A DNA stretch of 64,000 nucleotides. Source: Gemmatimonadaceae bacterium (GTDB lineage: Bacteria; Gemmatimonadota; Gemmatimonadetes; Gemmatimonadales; Gemmatimonadaceae). Position 1 is the stretch's first letter; each line of letters starts with the position of its first letter. The position numbers and the translations under genes were made by a program. The stretch is from contig DASXKV010000029.1 in the NCBI GenBank assembly GCA_036496605.1, positions 62,001 to 126,000 on the forward strand. The letters run 5' to 3'. The notes beneath the pieces were generated by a model. That model was not told the origin of the DNA. It did not search any database and saw nothing but the letters and a program-made list of their open reading frames with translations. Shown here piece after piece: positions 15,700 through 57,494 of the stretch.

Positions 15700-15788
15700 A
15701 GGGACTAGAGTTTAGGGGCTGAAGGTTAGGGCAGAATTCGGAACGAAGCGTTTCATTCGGTAAATCGCTAGGCCCTAGTCTCTAGCCA
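15700..15788. repeat. CTAG-type heptad repeats, inverted, ndk-DUF177 gap
   Basis: This gap has a left arm read as GGGACTA, GAGTTTA, GGGGCTG, AAGGTTA from 15701 and a right arm GGCCCTA, GTCTCTA, GCCATTA ending at the ndk stop. The arms are in opposite orientation and each keeps a 7-bp period. Between them lies a partly self-complementary stretch (15740-15758). The gap is otherwise empty. Confidence 0.6.
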
Positions 15789-16220
15789 TTAGCGCCTCGC
15801 CCTGATCAGCTCCGTCTCCGAGAAGAAGAATCTGGCCTCCCGCGCGGCATTCTCGTCGCTATCGGATGCGTGAATCGCGTTTCTCTCCTTTGACTCCGCG
15901 TAGAGCTTTCGCACAGTGCCTTCGGCTGCCTCCTTCGGATCGGTCGCGCCGATCGCGGCGCGCAACGACGCGACGGCGTCGCGCTTCTCGAGGACCATCG
16001 GCATCGCGGGGCCGGAAGTCATGAACGCGACGAGCGGTCCATAAAACGGCCGCTCTCGATGAACGGCGTAGAACTCCTTTGCCTCGTCATCGGTGAGCAG
16101 CGTGACGCGCGCGGCGCGCACGCGAAAGCCCTGTTGCTCCAGGTGCGCGATGATCTTTCCTGCCTTGCCGTTGCCAAATGCGTCGGGCTTGATGATCGCG
16201 AGCGTGAAATTGCCGGCCAT
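15789..16220 (-). CDS. ndk: Nucleoside diphosphate kinase
   Basis: Ndk transfers the gamma-phosphate between nucleoside triphosphates through a phospho-histidine. The 143-residue protein has Lys11 in IIKPDAF and the active-site His117 in NAIHASDS, with the usual length. It lies 15 bp after an EIIA-like/CBS regulator gene and ends a run that includes sucCD. Its stop codon directly abuts a heptad-repeat gap. Confidence 0.97.
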
Positions 16221-38736: not shown

Positions 38737-38799
38737 CGCACGCTCGCGCTCGACGCGCAACGCGCTGCGCTCAACGCTCTCCGCTCCGCGCTCAACACA
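38737..38799. repeat. CGCT-type heptad repeats, right arm upstream of dcd
   Basis: Nine units in 7-bp register end immediately at the dcd start: CGCACGC, TCGCGCT, CGACGCG, CAACGCG, CTGCGCT, CAACGCT, CTCCGCT, CCGCGCT, CAACACA. The consensus is CNNCGCT, the reverse complement of the AGCG-type units at 38621-38662. Transcribed, the two arms could pair as a long imperfect hairpin in the dcd leader. Confidence 0.6.
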
Positions 38800-50025: not shown

Positions 50026-50079
50026 GAGGGTCTAGGTTGGGGCTTTCAATTCTAGCCCCTATGCCCTAGCCCCTAGCGA
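50026..50079. repeat. CTAG-type heptad repeats, gap-pgk gap
   Basis: Left arm GAGGGTCTAGGTTGGGGCT (50027-50045) and right arm CTAGCCC, CTATGCC, CTAGCCC, CTAGCGA (50052-50079) are inverted and could pair as a hairpin around TTCAATT. CTAG sites in the right arm fall at multiples of 7 bp. The left arm matches the stretch GACGAGGGTCTAGG also found before radA (55974). Confidence 0.6.
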
Positions 50080-51114
<1,035 letters not shown>

Positions 51115-53831: not shown

Positions 53832-54556
53832 TCGGTCGACCTCGCGAGCGCCTCGATCCGCGCGAAGTCTTCCTCCTCGGTGATTTTCAATGCGCGCTCG
53901 CTGCCGCGCACGACAGCGACGTGAATGCCGAGGCGCTCGCAGAGCGCGGCGTCGTCCGTCGTGGAAAGCTTGGCTTTCGCGGCCTCCCGATGCGCGCGCA
54001 CGATCACCTCGCGCGGAAATCCCTGCGGTGTTTGGGCGCGCCACAGCGAGGAGCGATCGAGGGTGCGCGTGATGCGATGAGACGCGTCGACTTCCTTGAT
54101 CGTATCGGTGACGGGCAGCGCCGCAATCGCCGGTTCGCCACTCCGAACGTGATGGACGACGCGATCGATCGTCGCATTGTCCACCAGAGGCCGCGCCGCA
54201 TCGTGAACGAGCACGATGCTCGCTTCGTCAGGCAGATCGTCGAGACCGTTCGCGACCGACGCCGTGCGCGTCTCGCCACCGGGCGCGATCATCAGCCGGC
54301 TGATATCGCACTGAAAGATCCATGGCGGCGGATCGCCTGCATAACGATTCGGTAACACGCAGACGACGCTCACGACGTCGGGTCTGGACATAAAGGTCTG
54401 AAGGCTGTGGAGCAGCATCGGCTTGCCCGCGACCCAGCGCAGCTGCTTGAGCTCTCCGGCCCCCGCTCGCGTACTTGCGCCCGCGGCGACGATGACGACG
54501 CCGATGTCGCGATGAGCGGACTCGGGCGAATGCGTGGCGTCCCCGGCGCCGCTCAC
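53828..54556 (-). CDS. ispD: 2-C-methyl-D-erythritol 4-phosphate cytidylyltransferase
   Basis: IspD attaches CMP to MEP in isoprenoid synthesis. The 242-residue protein has VIVAAGASTRAG, KQLRWVAGKPML (Lys at the CTP site) and VHDAARPLV, with TPQGF later. The start is GTG at 54556 (GTGA with radA). Residues 1-15 before the nucleotide fold are extra. It is unlinked from ispF at 6 kb. Confidence 0.93.
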   Translation of the reverse strand: MSGAGDATHSPESAHRDIGVVIVAAGASTRAGAGELKQLRWVAGKPMLLHSLQTFMSRPDVVSVVCVLPNRYAGDPPPWIFQCDISRLMIAPGGETRTASVANGLDDLPDEASIVLVHDAARPLVDNATIDRVVHHVRSGEPAIAALPVTDTIKEVDASHRITRTLDRSSLWRAQTPQGFPREVIVRAHREAAKAKLSTTDDAALCERLGIHVAVVRGSERALKITEEEDFARIEALARSTE

Positions 54557-55956
54557 GCGAAGAGGCGCTGAAATAGATCGGCGATGGTGCGGACGCCGAT
54601 CACCTGCGTCTCGCGTGTCGCCGCGACTCGCTTCGGCACGCCGCGCTCGGCGACATACACACGCGTCATGCCCATGTTCGCTGCTTCGGCAACGCGTCGC
54701 TCGATCTGAGAAACCGGCCGTACCTCACCGCCCAGCCCCACTTCACCAACGAACACGGCATCTGCCGGCAAGGGACGCTCGTAGACACTCGAAGCCAACG
54801 CCGTGGCGACGGCGAGATCGCCGCCCGGCTCCTGGAGCCTAACGCCGCCCACCACATTCAAGAAGACATCGAGCGCGGCGAACGAGAGACCGGTGCGCTT
54901 GTCGAGCACCGCGAGCAAGAGGGCAAGGCGACGACCATCGTAACCTGTCGCGACGCGTTGCGGCGTGCCGAAACCTGCTTTCGCCGCGAGCGCCTGCACT
55001 TCGATCAGGACGGGGCGCGTTCCCTCGAGCAGCGCGGTGATCGCGCTGCCCGACGCGTGGCTATTGCGATCGCCAAGGAAGAGCTCCGAGGGATTCTGCA
55101 CGGGATCGAGTCCGGTTTCGGACATGCGAAACACGCCGATCTCGTCGACGGAACCGAAGCGATTCTTGGTCGCGCGAAGCACCCGGTGATCCAATGTGCT
55201 CTCGCCCTCGAAGTACAACACGGTATCGACGATGTGTTCGAGGGTCTTCGGTCCCGCGATACCGCCGCCCTTGGTGACGTGGCCGACGACGAACACCGTC
55301 GTCCCGCTCTCCTTTGCGAAGCGCATCAGCCGCGCGGCGCACTCGCGAACTTGCCCGACGTTGCCCGGTGCGCCCTCGAGATCGGCGGTGAAGATCGTCT
55401 GAATCGAATCGACGATCAGCGCCGACGGCGATACTGCACTCGCGGTCGCGAGTATCGTCTCGAGATTCGTCTCGCTCAGGAGTTCCACATCCCCTGCGTC
55501 GCTACTCAATCGGTCGGCGCGAAGCTTCACCTGCAACGGCGACTCTTCGCCCGAGGCGTACAACGCGCGATGTCCGCTTCCCTGCAGTTGGGCTGCGACC
55601 TGAAGCAACAGGGTCGACTTGCCGATGCCTGGCTCGCCGCCGATCAGGATCATCGAGCCGGGCACGATGCCACCACCGACGACGAAATCGAACTCGTCGA
55701 GACCCGTTTTCCAGCGTTTCGCCTCCGAGCCGCTGACGTCGCGCAAACGAGGAGTCGTTGCGACGCTTCCACCCTCACCTAACGAGCGCGCGCCGCCGAT
55801 CCGGCGCGCGGACCCACCACTCGCCACCGCGACCTTGGGCGCGACCATCTCTTCGACGAGGGTGTTCCATTCACCGCACGTATCGCAGCGCCCCTGCCAC
55901 TTCGAGTACTCGGCGCCGCATTCGGCGCAGCGGTAGACGGTCTTTGTCTTGGCCAT
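54553..55956 (-). CDS. radA: DNA repair protein RadA
   Basis: RadA (Sms) is a hexameric ATP-driven helicase-like factor aiding branch migration in recombination. The 467-residue protein has a zinc finger (Cys10, Cys13, Cys24, Cys27), Walker A GGEPGIGKST (107-116), the signature KNRFGSVDEIGVF, and a Lon-like C-terminal domain. It begins after a long heptad-repeat gap that follows dnaB. Confidence 0.96.
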   Translation of the reverse strand: MAKTKTVYRCAECGAEYSKWQGRCDTCGEWNTLVEEMVAPKVAVASGGSARRIGGARSLGEGGSVATTPRLRDVSGSEAKRWKTGLDEFDFVVGGGIVPGSMILIGGEPGIGKSTLLLQVAAQLQGSGHRALYASGEESPLQVKLRADRLSSDAGDVELLSETNLETILATASAVSPSALIVDSIQTIFTADLEGAPGNVGQVRECAARLMRFAKESGTTVFVVGHVTKGGGIAGPKTLEHIVDTVLYFEGESTLDHRVLRATKNRFGSVDEIGVFRMSETGLDPVQNPSELFLGDRNSHASGSAITALLEGTRPVLIEVQALAAKAGFGTPQRVATGYDGRRLALLLAVLDKRTGLSFAALDVFLNVVGGVRLQEPGGDLAVATALASSVYERPLPADAVFVGEVGLGGEVRPVSQIERRVAEAANMGMTRVYVAERGVPKRVAATRETQVIGVRTIADLFQRLFA

Positions 55957-55975: not shown

Positions 55976-56087
55976 GAGGGTCTAGGGACATAGGGGCTAG
56001 GTGCCGACCCTAGGCTCTAGCCCCGAGGCTCTAGCCCCTAGGCTCTAGGCTCTAGCCTCTAGCCTCTAGCCCCTGGGCTCTAGCCCC
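55976..56087. repeat. CTAG-type heptad repeat array, dnaB-radA gap
   Basis: Eleven CTAG tetranucleotides occur in 102 bp (55982-56083). From 56010 they fall on a 7-bp register: CTAGGCT, CTAGCCC, CGAGGCT, CTAGCCC, CTAGGCT, CTAGGCT, CTAGCCT, CTAGCCT, CTAGCCC, CTGGGCT, CTAGCCC. A shorter left part (GGGTCTAGGG, AGGGGCTAGG) is in the opposite sense, so the region can fold back. No gene fits here. Confidence 0.85.
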
Positions 56088-57494
56088 TCACTGATCCTGC
56101 GGCCGCTTGGAGTAGTTCTCAAACCGCGTGTACTGCTTATGGAAATGTAGATTGACGACGCCCGTTGGACCGTTGCGCTGTTTGCCGACGATCACCTCGG
56201 CTTTCCCTTCGAGCGAGTTACCGTCCCTGTCCACGGGACCGTCGTACATCTCCTGCCGGTACAGGAACATGATCAGGTCCGCGTCCTGCTCGATCGCGCC
56301 AGACTCGCGGAGATCCGATAGCTGCGGGCGCTTGTGCTCGCCAGTGCGTTGCTCCGGCGCACGCGAGAGCTGGGACAGCGCAATTACGGGAACGCTCAAT
56401 TCCTTCGCCAACGCTTTGAGCCCGCGCGAGATCATGCTGACTTCTTGCTGCCTGCTTTCCGAGTTGGAAGGTCCTTGCATGAGCTGCAAGTAGTCGACGA
56501 TGACCATCTTCACTCCCGACTCCGCCTTGAGCCGGCGTGCCTTTGATCGCATCTCGAGCAGGGTGATGCCCGGCGTGTCGTCGATCCACACCGGTGCCGA
56601 ACTTAGTATGCCCGCCGCGCGCGCGAGGCGCGGAAAATCATCGTCACGGAGCATTCCCTTGCGAAGACGCTGCGCGTCGATGCGCGCTTCTGCTGTGAGC
56701 ATTCGCTGAACGAGCGATTCCTTGCTCATTTCCAGCGAGAAGAAGGCGACCGGCACCTGATCGACGATCGCAGCGTGCTGGGCGACGTTGAGGCAGAACG
56801 CGGTCTTTCCCATCGATGGACGCGCGGCGACGATGACGAGATCGGCCGGTTGGAAGCCCGACGTCAGGTCGTCGAGGTCGTTGAAACCGCTGGCCACACC
56901 CGTGACCGTGTTACCGCCGTGCTGGAGCGCCTCGATCCGCTCCATCGTCGGCCACAGCAGCTCCTTGATGCGCGTGAAGCCTTCGCGTGCGCGTGCCTGC
57001 GCGACCTGGAAGATCTTTGCTTCCGCGTCGTCGAGCAGCTCGAAGCTCGTGAGCTGGCTCTCGTAAGCTTCCTGCACGATGACCGTCGAGACTTCGATCA
57101 ATCGGCGGCGGAGGGCCTTTTCCTTAACGATCTGCCCGTGGTAATCGATATTCGCCGCGGTCGGCACGACGTCGACGAGAAAGCCGACGTAATCCTTGCC
57201 GCCTGACGACTCGAGCTCACCGCGACGTGACAGTTCCTCGCAGAGCGTCAGTGGATCGACGACTCCGCCGCGTTCCGTAATCGCGACCATCGCACGGAAA
57301 ATCCGTCGATGACGCTCCGCGTAGAACATCGTGTCGTCGACCGTCTCCGTGGCGCGCAGGACCGCATCCTGGTCCATGAGCATCGCGGAGAGGACGGCCT
57401 GCTCCGCGTCCTCGGAGTAGGGGGGACGACGATCGCGATAGGGATCACGCGCCGCTGAGGGCGCGATCGAGTATTCGACGGGCGAGCTGGACAT
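56088..57494 (-). CDS. dnaB: Replicative DNA helicase
   Basis: DnaB unwinds DNA at the replication fork. The 468-residue protein has the N-terminal collar EDAEQAVLSAMLMD and the RecA-like core with Walker A RPSMGKTAF, VDYLQLM (Walker B) and ESGAIEQDADLIMFLYR. The ATG at 57494 lies 50 bp inside the end of the uracil-DNA glycosylase gene; no later start precedes the conserved collar. Intein-free. Confidence 0.97.
   Translation of the reverse strand: MSSSPVEYSIAPSAARDPYRDRRPPYSEDAEQAVLSAMLMDQDAVLRATETVDDTMFYAERHRRIFRAMVAITERGGVVDPLTLCEELSRRGELESSGGKDYVGFLVDVVPTAANIDYHGQIVKEKALRRRLIEVSTVIVQEAYESQLTSFELLDDAEAKIFQVAQARAREGFTRIKELLWPTMERIEALQHGGNTVTGVASGFNDLDDLTSGFQPADLVIVAARPSMGKTAFCLNVAQHAAIVDQVPVAFFSLEMSKESLVQRMLTAEARIDAQRLRKGMLRDDDFPRLARAAGILSSAPVWIDDTPGITLLEMRSKARRLKAESGVKMVIVDYLQLMQGPSNSESRQQEVSMISRGLKALAKELSVPVIALSQLSRAPEQRTGEHKRPQLSDLRESGAIEQDADLIMFLYRQEMYDGPVDRDGNSLEGKAEVIVGKQRNGPTGVVNLHFHKQYTRFENYSKRPQDQ

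What the first reader, a model, noticed from the sequence alone, without database searches (positions are those of the whole stretch)
55976..56087. CTAG-rich heptad array between dnaB and radA
Eleven CTAG sites in about 100 bp, falling on a 7-bp register over 11 units, in a genome where CTAG is otherwise scarce in genes. The left part is in reverse sense, giving a fold-back structure. Heptanucleotide short tandem repeats are known in cyanobacteria (STRR), but this unit differs.
Basis: seen in the sequence. Interest (0 to 1): 0.55.

Follow-up and report, generated by a model that had tools for sequence, protein, structure and literature searches.

The report
Heptad-armed hairpin elements in bacteria
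The 7-base repeat between dnaB and radA is one of many such repeats in this soil bacterium, and repeats of the same build bracket a widespread small gene of unknown function, which suggests one class of bacterial repeat element that had been described only in separate pieces.

Summary
The array is real: 11 CTAG sites at 55982-56083 on a 7-bp register, abutting the dnaB stop codon. It is not unique: in 864 kb of this Gemmatimonadaceae genome 37 period-7 arrays pass a threshold that seven other lags pass 0-4 times each, with several units.

Unexpectedly, tandem arrays of this build bracket the four-helix-bundle gene PF05635 (S23, 23S rRNA intervening-sequence protein). Of 97 testable loci (Gemmatimonadota, mainly cyanobacterial plasmids, viral contigs) 59 have inverted flanks against 3 of 713 control genes; the strongest flank has period 7 in 38 of the 72 with a clear period. 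Unit length follows protein phylogeny. ORF-less arrays share units with PF05635 arms of the same genome. Two Nostoc plasmids show empty and filled sites.

Best reading: an ORF-less, partly decayed member of a class of repeat-armed elements whose coding members carry PF05635. Against it: the array's own fold-back is not exceptional, and array density does not track PF05635 number across 22 genomes. Mechanism of spread and RNA role are inferred. Nine searches of open-licence papers (capped listings) showed no report of the link.

The parts
55976..56090 (-). whole heptad array as transcribed with dnaB and radA; folds end to end into one hairpin on its own
   Evidence: fold not better than shuffles (z -1.1)
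55976..56006 (+). left arm, purine-rich on the + strand: GAGGGTCTAGGGACATAGGGGCTAGGTGCC
56007..56087 (+). right arm, mixed CTAGGCT / CTAGCCY heptads ending TAGCCCCTC
56088..57494 (-). dnaB (replicative helicase; name from its sequence as recalled and from the finding); stop codon TGA abuts the array
54553..55956 (-). radA; start codon 19 bp beyond the array
50032..50080 (.). second CTAG-heptad fold-back in the window, between genes on the minus strand
15705..15790 (.). third, short CTAG array beside a GAATTCGGAACGAAGCG sequence that recurs between arms elsewhere
38751..38794 (.). weak period-7 array with another unit (CGCTCAA-like), in an intergenic gap

Best explanation
The dnaB-radA array is an ORF-less, partly decayed member of a class of repeat-armed stem-loop elements: a tandem array (unit most often 7 bp, the unit differing between genomes and elements), a loop, and the inverted array, purine-rich arm first. 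Coding members carry in the loop a PF05635 four-helix-bundle gene, the protein also known from intervening sequences (IVS) of 23S rRNA. Elements lie in intercistronic gaps, often right after a stop codon. Shown here: period, genome-wide recurrence, arms around PF05635, unit length following protein phylogeny, unit sharing between ORF-less and coding elements of one genome, empty and filled sites. Inferred: that the ORF-less arrays descend from coding elements or were spread with help of the protein; that arms grow by slippage in 7-bp steps; that in mRNA the arms form a duplex which RNase III or similar may cut, as reported for rRNA IVSs, which would make insertion inside an operon tolerable.
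For: Period 7 against other lags, 37 vs 0-4. PF05635 loci of three congeners: inverted-repeat score of at least 29 in 13 of 20 scoreable loci (of 21), against 14 of 1495 random positions. Wider set: 59 of 97 with inverted flanks vs 3 of 713 control genes, Fisher 1.3e-59; both flanks tandem 49 of 97 vs 6 of 713, 2e-44. Plasmids and viral contigs: 17 of 25 loci beat all 200 shuffles of their own flanks. Polarity: purine-rich arm first in 39 of 46 two-armed PF05635 elements, pyrimidine first in 2. Unit length on the protein tree: 12 changes against a shuffled mean of 21.7, minimum 18; one 12-row clade has only units of 14-17. Unit sharing: 9.1 matches per Mb in the same genome vs 0.65 in others; in genomes whose stretches were not chosen for arrays 7 in 0.7 Mb vs 18 in 39.4 Mb. 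Same gap with ORF-less CTAGGGG element in G000 and PF05635-bearing CTAGGTG element in G001. Empty and filled operon junctions in Nostoc sp. ATCC 53789 plasmids. An IVS inside 23S rRNA with heptad arms, L284 Azospirillum. On one Anabaena plasmid stretch both period-7 arrays sit at the PF05635 gene, and the homologous DGR Avd gene has no arms.
Against: The target's own fold-back is ordinary (z -1.1; score 19, below the 95th percentile of intergenic gaps). Of 33 intergenic arrays only 14 exceed that 95th percentile and 4 the 99th; 18 of 33 scanned blocks are one-sided in G/C skew. Array density does not correlate with PF05635 number over 22 genomes, rho 0.09, p 0.70; samples were 20-80 kb each. 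Own-genome controls are themselves array-rich: 91 of 713 have a tandem flank on one side. 19 of 97 PF05635 loci meet neither criterion, among them a conserved group without arms (L231, L240, L246); L228 and L277 have arms in direct orientation. In the unit-sharing test only 17 of 34 loci had a match in their own genome and 15 of 34 a higher density there than elsewhere. No mobility enzyme was found: RVT_1 in 4 of 25 genomes, Y1 transposase in 0 of 3.
Confidence: 0.55

Rival explanations
1. Ordinary simple-sequence expansion: bacterial polymerases slip in 7-bp steps, short hairpins after genes are preferred sites, and PF05635 genes are irrelevant to the arrays.
For: Period-7 dominates whatever the unit; the two arms of one element often differ in unit and length; density does not track PF05635 number; Rehm et al. 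relate a polymerase-footprint idea for heptads (Discussion read).
Against: Does not explain arms around 59 of 97 PF05635 genes vs 3 of 713 controls, periods of 8, 10, 11 and 14-17 around them or the phylogenetic signal of unit length.
Confidence: 0.2
2. Passive cargo: PF05635 genes move by their own means and prefer the loops of pre-existing hairpin arrays, as IVSs sit in rRNA helices; the arrays are older and independent.
For: Same gap with an ORF-less array in one species and a PF05635 gene between arms in another; IVSs replace rRNA tetraloops (PMC4990558, passages); arms of an L284-type IVS are also heptads.
Against: On the Anabaena plasmid stretch no other period-7 array exists to insert into, and the Nostoc empty sites are 3-bp gaps without an array.
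Confidence: 0.15
3. A domesticated 3'-end device: the array works as a transcription terminator, attenuator or mRNA stabiliser between dnaB and radA.
For: Array edges lie within 15 bp of a stop codon in 23 of 37 cases against 10 of 29 for start codons, p 0.046; one orthologous G001 gap has a hairpin with a T run where G000 has a heptad hairpin.
Against: No T run follows this array on the transcribed strand; fold no better than shuffles; not conserved at this gap in G001 or G002.
Confidence: 0.1

Closest known systems
G-rich heptad repeats GGGAATC / GGGGA(C/T)T of Xanthomonas and Nostoc (Rehm et al. 2015, PMC4692102: abstract, Results part 1, Discussion and found passages read)
   Same: Heptads, G-rich, dispersed and mostly intergenic; 70 and 75 convergent inverted pairs in the two xanthomonads; function unknown.
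   Different: Unit CTAGGGG and several others in one genome; the paper's text holds no 'S23', 'four helix' or 'intervening' and says no general association with mobile elements was found.
23S rRNA intervening sequences with S23p ORF (Coxiella IVS paper PMC4990558, passages read)
   Same: Stem of inverted repeats around a PF05635 gene; L284 shows such an IVS with heptad arms.
   Different: The dnaB-radA array is intergenic and has no ORF; heptads did not appear in the passages seen, although the word 'heptamer' occurs 6 times in that paper and those places were not read.
TAACTGA direct heptad repeats of Beggiatoaceae, cyanobacteria and Bacteroidetes (PMC4679880, listing and found passages)
   Same: Intergenic heptads, many loci.
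   Different: Direct repeats of one unit, one inverted case; no 'four helix', 'S23' or '23S rRNA' in the text.
STRR heptanucleotide repeats of heterocystous cyanobacteria (recalled, not read)
   Same: Heptanucleotide tandem repeats in noncoding DNA.
   Different: Other units; not tested here.
Avd of diversity-generating retroelements (PMC10053308, passages; NCBIfam NF033474 hit by 3 of 9 members)
   Same: Homologous four-helix-bundle protein family.
   Different: One DGR Avd gene looked at has no arms; no RT needed to be present in 21 of 25 genomes.

Membership tests
Heptanucleotide tandem repeat arrays | head-to-tail units of 7 bp | tested here: met
Heptanucleotide tandem repeat arrays | dispersed, intergenic | tested here: met
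   33 of 37 arrays overlap predicted genes by under 30%, own simple gene caller
GGGNATC repeats of Rehm et al. | unit GGGNATC | tested here: not met
   unit CTAGGGG / CTAGGCT
GGGNATC repeats of Rehm et al. | G-quadruplex formation | not testable with these tools
   CD spectroscopy needed
PF05635 (S23) elements | PF05635 gene between the arms | tested here: not met
   no room for an ORF in the 131-bp gap; genome hits lie elsewhere
PF05635 (S23) elements | inverted tandem arms | tested here: inconclusive
   tandem array met; inversion present but not above background
PF05635 (S23) elements | unit shared with a coding element of the same genome | tested here: inconclusive
   CTAGGGG/TTAGGGG arms of L235 match 17 places in G000 and none in 23 others; I did not check that this array is one of the 17
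23S rRNA IVS | located in 23S rRNA | tested here: not met
   between dnaB and radA
23S rRNA IVS | excised by RNase III | not testable with these tools
   needs RNA work
Intrinsic terminator | GC-rich hairpin followed by a U run | tested here: not met
   no T run after the array on the minus strand, read from the sequence; no terminator scan run
REP elements with RAYT | Y1 transposase PF01797 in the genome | tested here: not met
   0 of 3 genomes of the genus

The most novel reading that the evidence does not exclude
PF05635 four-helix-bundle proteins maintain and spread their own inverted tandem arms: the protein subfamily sets the repeat length (7-8 or 14-17 bp), elements insert at stop codons of operon junctions, and the orphan heptad repeats of Gemmatimonadota, Xanthomonas and cyanobacteria are ORF-less derivatives. 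This would be a class of mobile repeat-armed element without transposase or reverse transcriptase of its own, with 23S rRNA IVSs as the special case that landed in rRNA.
Probability: 0.4. Interest if true: 0.9.

Novelty: new variant of a known kind. Interest (0 to 1): 0.68.

Why it matters
Two old puzzles would become one testable question: why bacteria carry hundreds of heptad repeats between genes, and what the very common four-helix-bundle (S23) protein does. If the protein acts on its arms, a family with a known fold (2gsc, 2rld) gets a substrate, and the origin of 23S rRNA intervening sequences gets a mechanism to test.

Tried and rejected
REP/RAYT: no PF01797 in 3 of 3 genomes. Linked reverse transcriptase: RVT_1 in only 4 of 25 genomes, none in G006, G008, G011 or G018, which have 8-10 PF05635 hits each. 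Genome-level correlation of array density with PF05635 number: none. Intrinsic terminator: no T run. A viral-contig scan with the L244 subtype found no relative. GxxExxY (PF13366) genes: 5 of 12 scoreable loci (of 13) reach a score of 29, so a similar build is possible but was not pursued; three loci were misplaced at contig ends and put right. My first count of 15- and 16-mer arms by eye was wrong for four loci (they are 14-mers).

Dropped before the counts: L260, L314, L352 (my script found no open frame; L314 because its coordinate was wrong), L262, L263, L270 (as similar to L261), L288 (same as L243), two redundant proteins, L234 (flank too short to score). Of 24 plasmid records 17 were fetched. 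L284 counts as negative, because the longer frame chosen there runs into the arm, but as positive.

Full report
What is there. Between dnaB (stop at 56088) and radA (start at 55956), both on the minus strand, lies a heptad array with 11 CTAG sites, 55976-56090. TRF gives period 7 and 10.9 copies. The genome, G000, is 5.97 Mb in 70 contigs; RadA places it in Gemmatimonadaceae, its nearest named relative being a 'Gemmatimonas sp.' MAG at 91% identity, which is probably G001 (contig C238 has the same length).

It is one of many. The pattern of four CTAG heptads occurs at 53 overlapping places in the genome, with none for the reversed control, in 11 of 60 relatives, and with other third letters in other species (CTAGGTG in G001 and G002, CTAGAGA in G056). 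A 864-kb sample (window plus 40 stretches, some of them picked because one search had hits there) has 37 arrays at lag 7 and 0, 3, 0, 4, 2, 2, 0 at lags 5, 6, 8, 9, 10, 11, 13; at a stricter threshold 22 against 0 at every lag from 4 to 13 other than 7, with 3 at lag 15 and 2 at lag 17. Units include CTAGGGG, TTAGGGG, AGGGTAG, AGGGCTG and TTGGTGG. 33 of 37 lie mostly outside genes predicted by a simple caller of mine; contexts are 21 tandem, 8 convergent, 4 divergent, against 228, 47 and 99 of 374 gaps of 60 bp or more. Array edges lie within 15 bp of a stop codon in 23 of 37 cases and of a start codon in 10 of 29 (p 0.046).

How far the arrays are inverted. By eye many consist of a G-rich arm, a loop and a C-rich arm. 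Measured: 10 of 33 blocks are G-rich then C-rich, none the reverse, 18 keep one sign. Inverted-repeat scores have a median of 24 against 15 in 184 other intergenic gaps; 14 of 33 exceed the 95th percentile of those gaps and 4 the 99th. The target scores 19, and its RNA fold is no better than shuffles (z -1.1). So inversion is common in the class but weak in this copy.

The gap in relatives. Own and G001 sequences were compared gap by gap. The same gaps hold different elements: CTAGGGG in G000 against CTAGGTG in G001, AGGGTTG against CACCGAT, a heptad hairpin against a plain hairpin with a T run. At dnaB-radA, G001 has a long unrelated inverted repeat (z -11.7), G002 a weaker one (z -2.6), L026 (Roseisolibacter) and L067 hairpins of GAGCGTC and AGTNNGG heptads (z -5.0, -10.5).

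The link with PF05635. In one of these gaps, G001 has CTAGGTG arms around a small gene. It is PF05635, the 23S rRNA IVP or four-helix-bundle family; TIGR02436 matched 9 of 9 aligned members and the solved relatives are 2gsc (XCC0516) and 2rld. The three congeners have 11, 7 and 3 hits, the 14 control genomes none. Reading the flanks showed arms around most of them: GGGCGAC, AGGGTAG, TTGGTGG, TTAGGGG, CTAGGTG, GCGGGAC heptads, and 14-17-mers around another subtype. 13 of 20 scoreable loci have an inverted-repeat score of at least 29, against 14 of 1495 random positions and a maximum of 33 in 108 small genes.

Beyond the genus. A plasmid search gave 24 records, mostly cyanobacteria; 17 were fetched. 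A viral-contig scan gave 11 loci. In 11 of 17 plasmid loci and 6 of 8 viral loci the inverted score beats all 200 shuffles of the same flanks, for example GGGAGTA arms between two ribonucleotide reductase genes in Nostoc edaphicum, GGTGACA arms between cas6 and cas4 in Anabaena sp. 90, and AAAAGCT repeats, there in direct orientation, between cas6 and cas4 of Pseudanabaena. In Azospirillum (L284) the gene lies inside 23S rRNA and its arms are heptads. With further Gemmatimonadota loci the set is 97 scored loci: inverted flanks in 59, tandem flank on either side in 72, on both in 49, neither sign in 19; for 713 own-genome genes 3, 91, 6 (Fisher 1.3e-59 and 2e-44 for the first and third). The control genes come from one genome only. 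The period of the strongest flank is 7 in 38, 14 in 7, 8 in 7, 15 in 5, 17 in 4, 16 in 3, 21 in 3, others in 5. The purine-rich arm comes first in 39 of 46 two-armed elements, the pyrimidine-rich in 2.

Unit length and phylogeny. On a quick tree of 97 proteins with few columns, a supported clade of 12 has only units of 14-17, and 5 such rows lie elsewhere. Length classes need 12 changes over 66 rows against a mean of 21.7 and a minimum of 18 in 200 shuffles. Inheritance of arms with the gene would give this too.

ORF-less arrays and coding elements of one genome share the unit: G065 has a 10-mer CGACAGAGTA and an 11-mer in both, G016 an 8-mer, G018 a 14-mer, G008 two heptads. Pooled over 34 loci, 9.1 matches per Mb in the same genome and 0.65 in 23 others; 17 of 34 have a match in their own genome, 15 of 34 a higher density there, most samples being only 20-40 kb. 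In genomes whose stretches were not chosen for arrays: 7 in 0.7 Mb against 18 in 39.4 Mb. But density of period-7 arrays does not follow PF05635 number over 22 genomes (rho 0.09, p 0.70).

Empty and filled sites. Two plasmids of Nostoc sp. ATCC 53789 carry the same small operon (144 of 147 and 90 of 96 aligned positions identical in two genes). In each, a PF05635 gene with repeats sits in a junction that is a bare 3-bp gap after the stop codon in the other plasmid; at one of them TTCTA stands on both sides. The two PF05635 proteins differ (50 of 126). On a 50-kb stretch of the Anabaena plasmid both period-7 arrays sit at the PF05635 gene, while the DGR Avd gene, a homologue, has no arms.

How it may work. 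Transcribed with the upstream gene, inverted arms would form a duplex; IVS stems in rRNA are reported to be cut by RNase III (PMC4990558, passages). That would free the upstream mRNA and make insertion after a stop codon tolerable. Heptad steps would come from slippage or from the protein. No enzyme for movement was found. These steps are inference.

Literature. Rehm et al. (PMC4692102) describe GGGAATC heptads in Xanthomonas, with 70 and 75 convergent pairs, and leave the function open; the words S23, four helix and intervening do not occur there. The solved PF05635 structure 2gsc is called XCC0516, by its name a Xanthomonas campestris protein, so the genus has both pieces; I could not inspect its flanks. 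Searches, with capped listings of open-licence papers, showed no paper that joins the two.

Verdict. A confirmed heptad array, ordinary as a single locus; of interest because its class appears tied to PF05635 elements.

Noticed in passing
G000, G001, G002: loci L247-L259: GxxExxY (PF13366) genes: 5 of 12 scoreable loci have inverted flanks of other make (such as GCGGACA or GACGCGAAT words).
   Followed up: partly
C4, C33 of G000; G001 C118; window 15705: Loops between heptad arms often hold dispersed palindromes, e.g. GGAATTCGGAACGAAGCG..CGCTTCGTTCCGAA and TCATCCTGAGCG..; seen by eye.
   Followed up: no
L272, L277, L281 (cyanobacterial plasmids): PF05635 genes sit inside CRISPR-cas operons: twice between cas6 and cas4, once between cas10 and a cmr3-like gene.
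   Followed up: no
L231, L240, L246: One PF05635 group is conserved in three congeners without arms, near the word TGTGATATTTTTCACAAGC.
   Followed up: no
L368:10186-10539: A DGR Avd gene with a neighbouring reverse transcriptase on the Anabaena sp. 90 plasmid that also carries a PF05635 element.
   Followed up: partly
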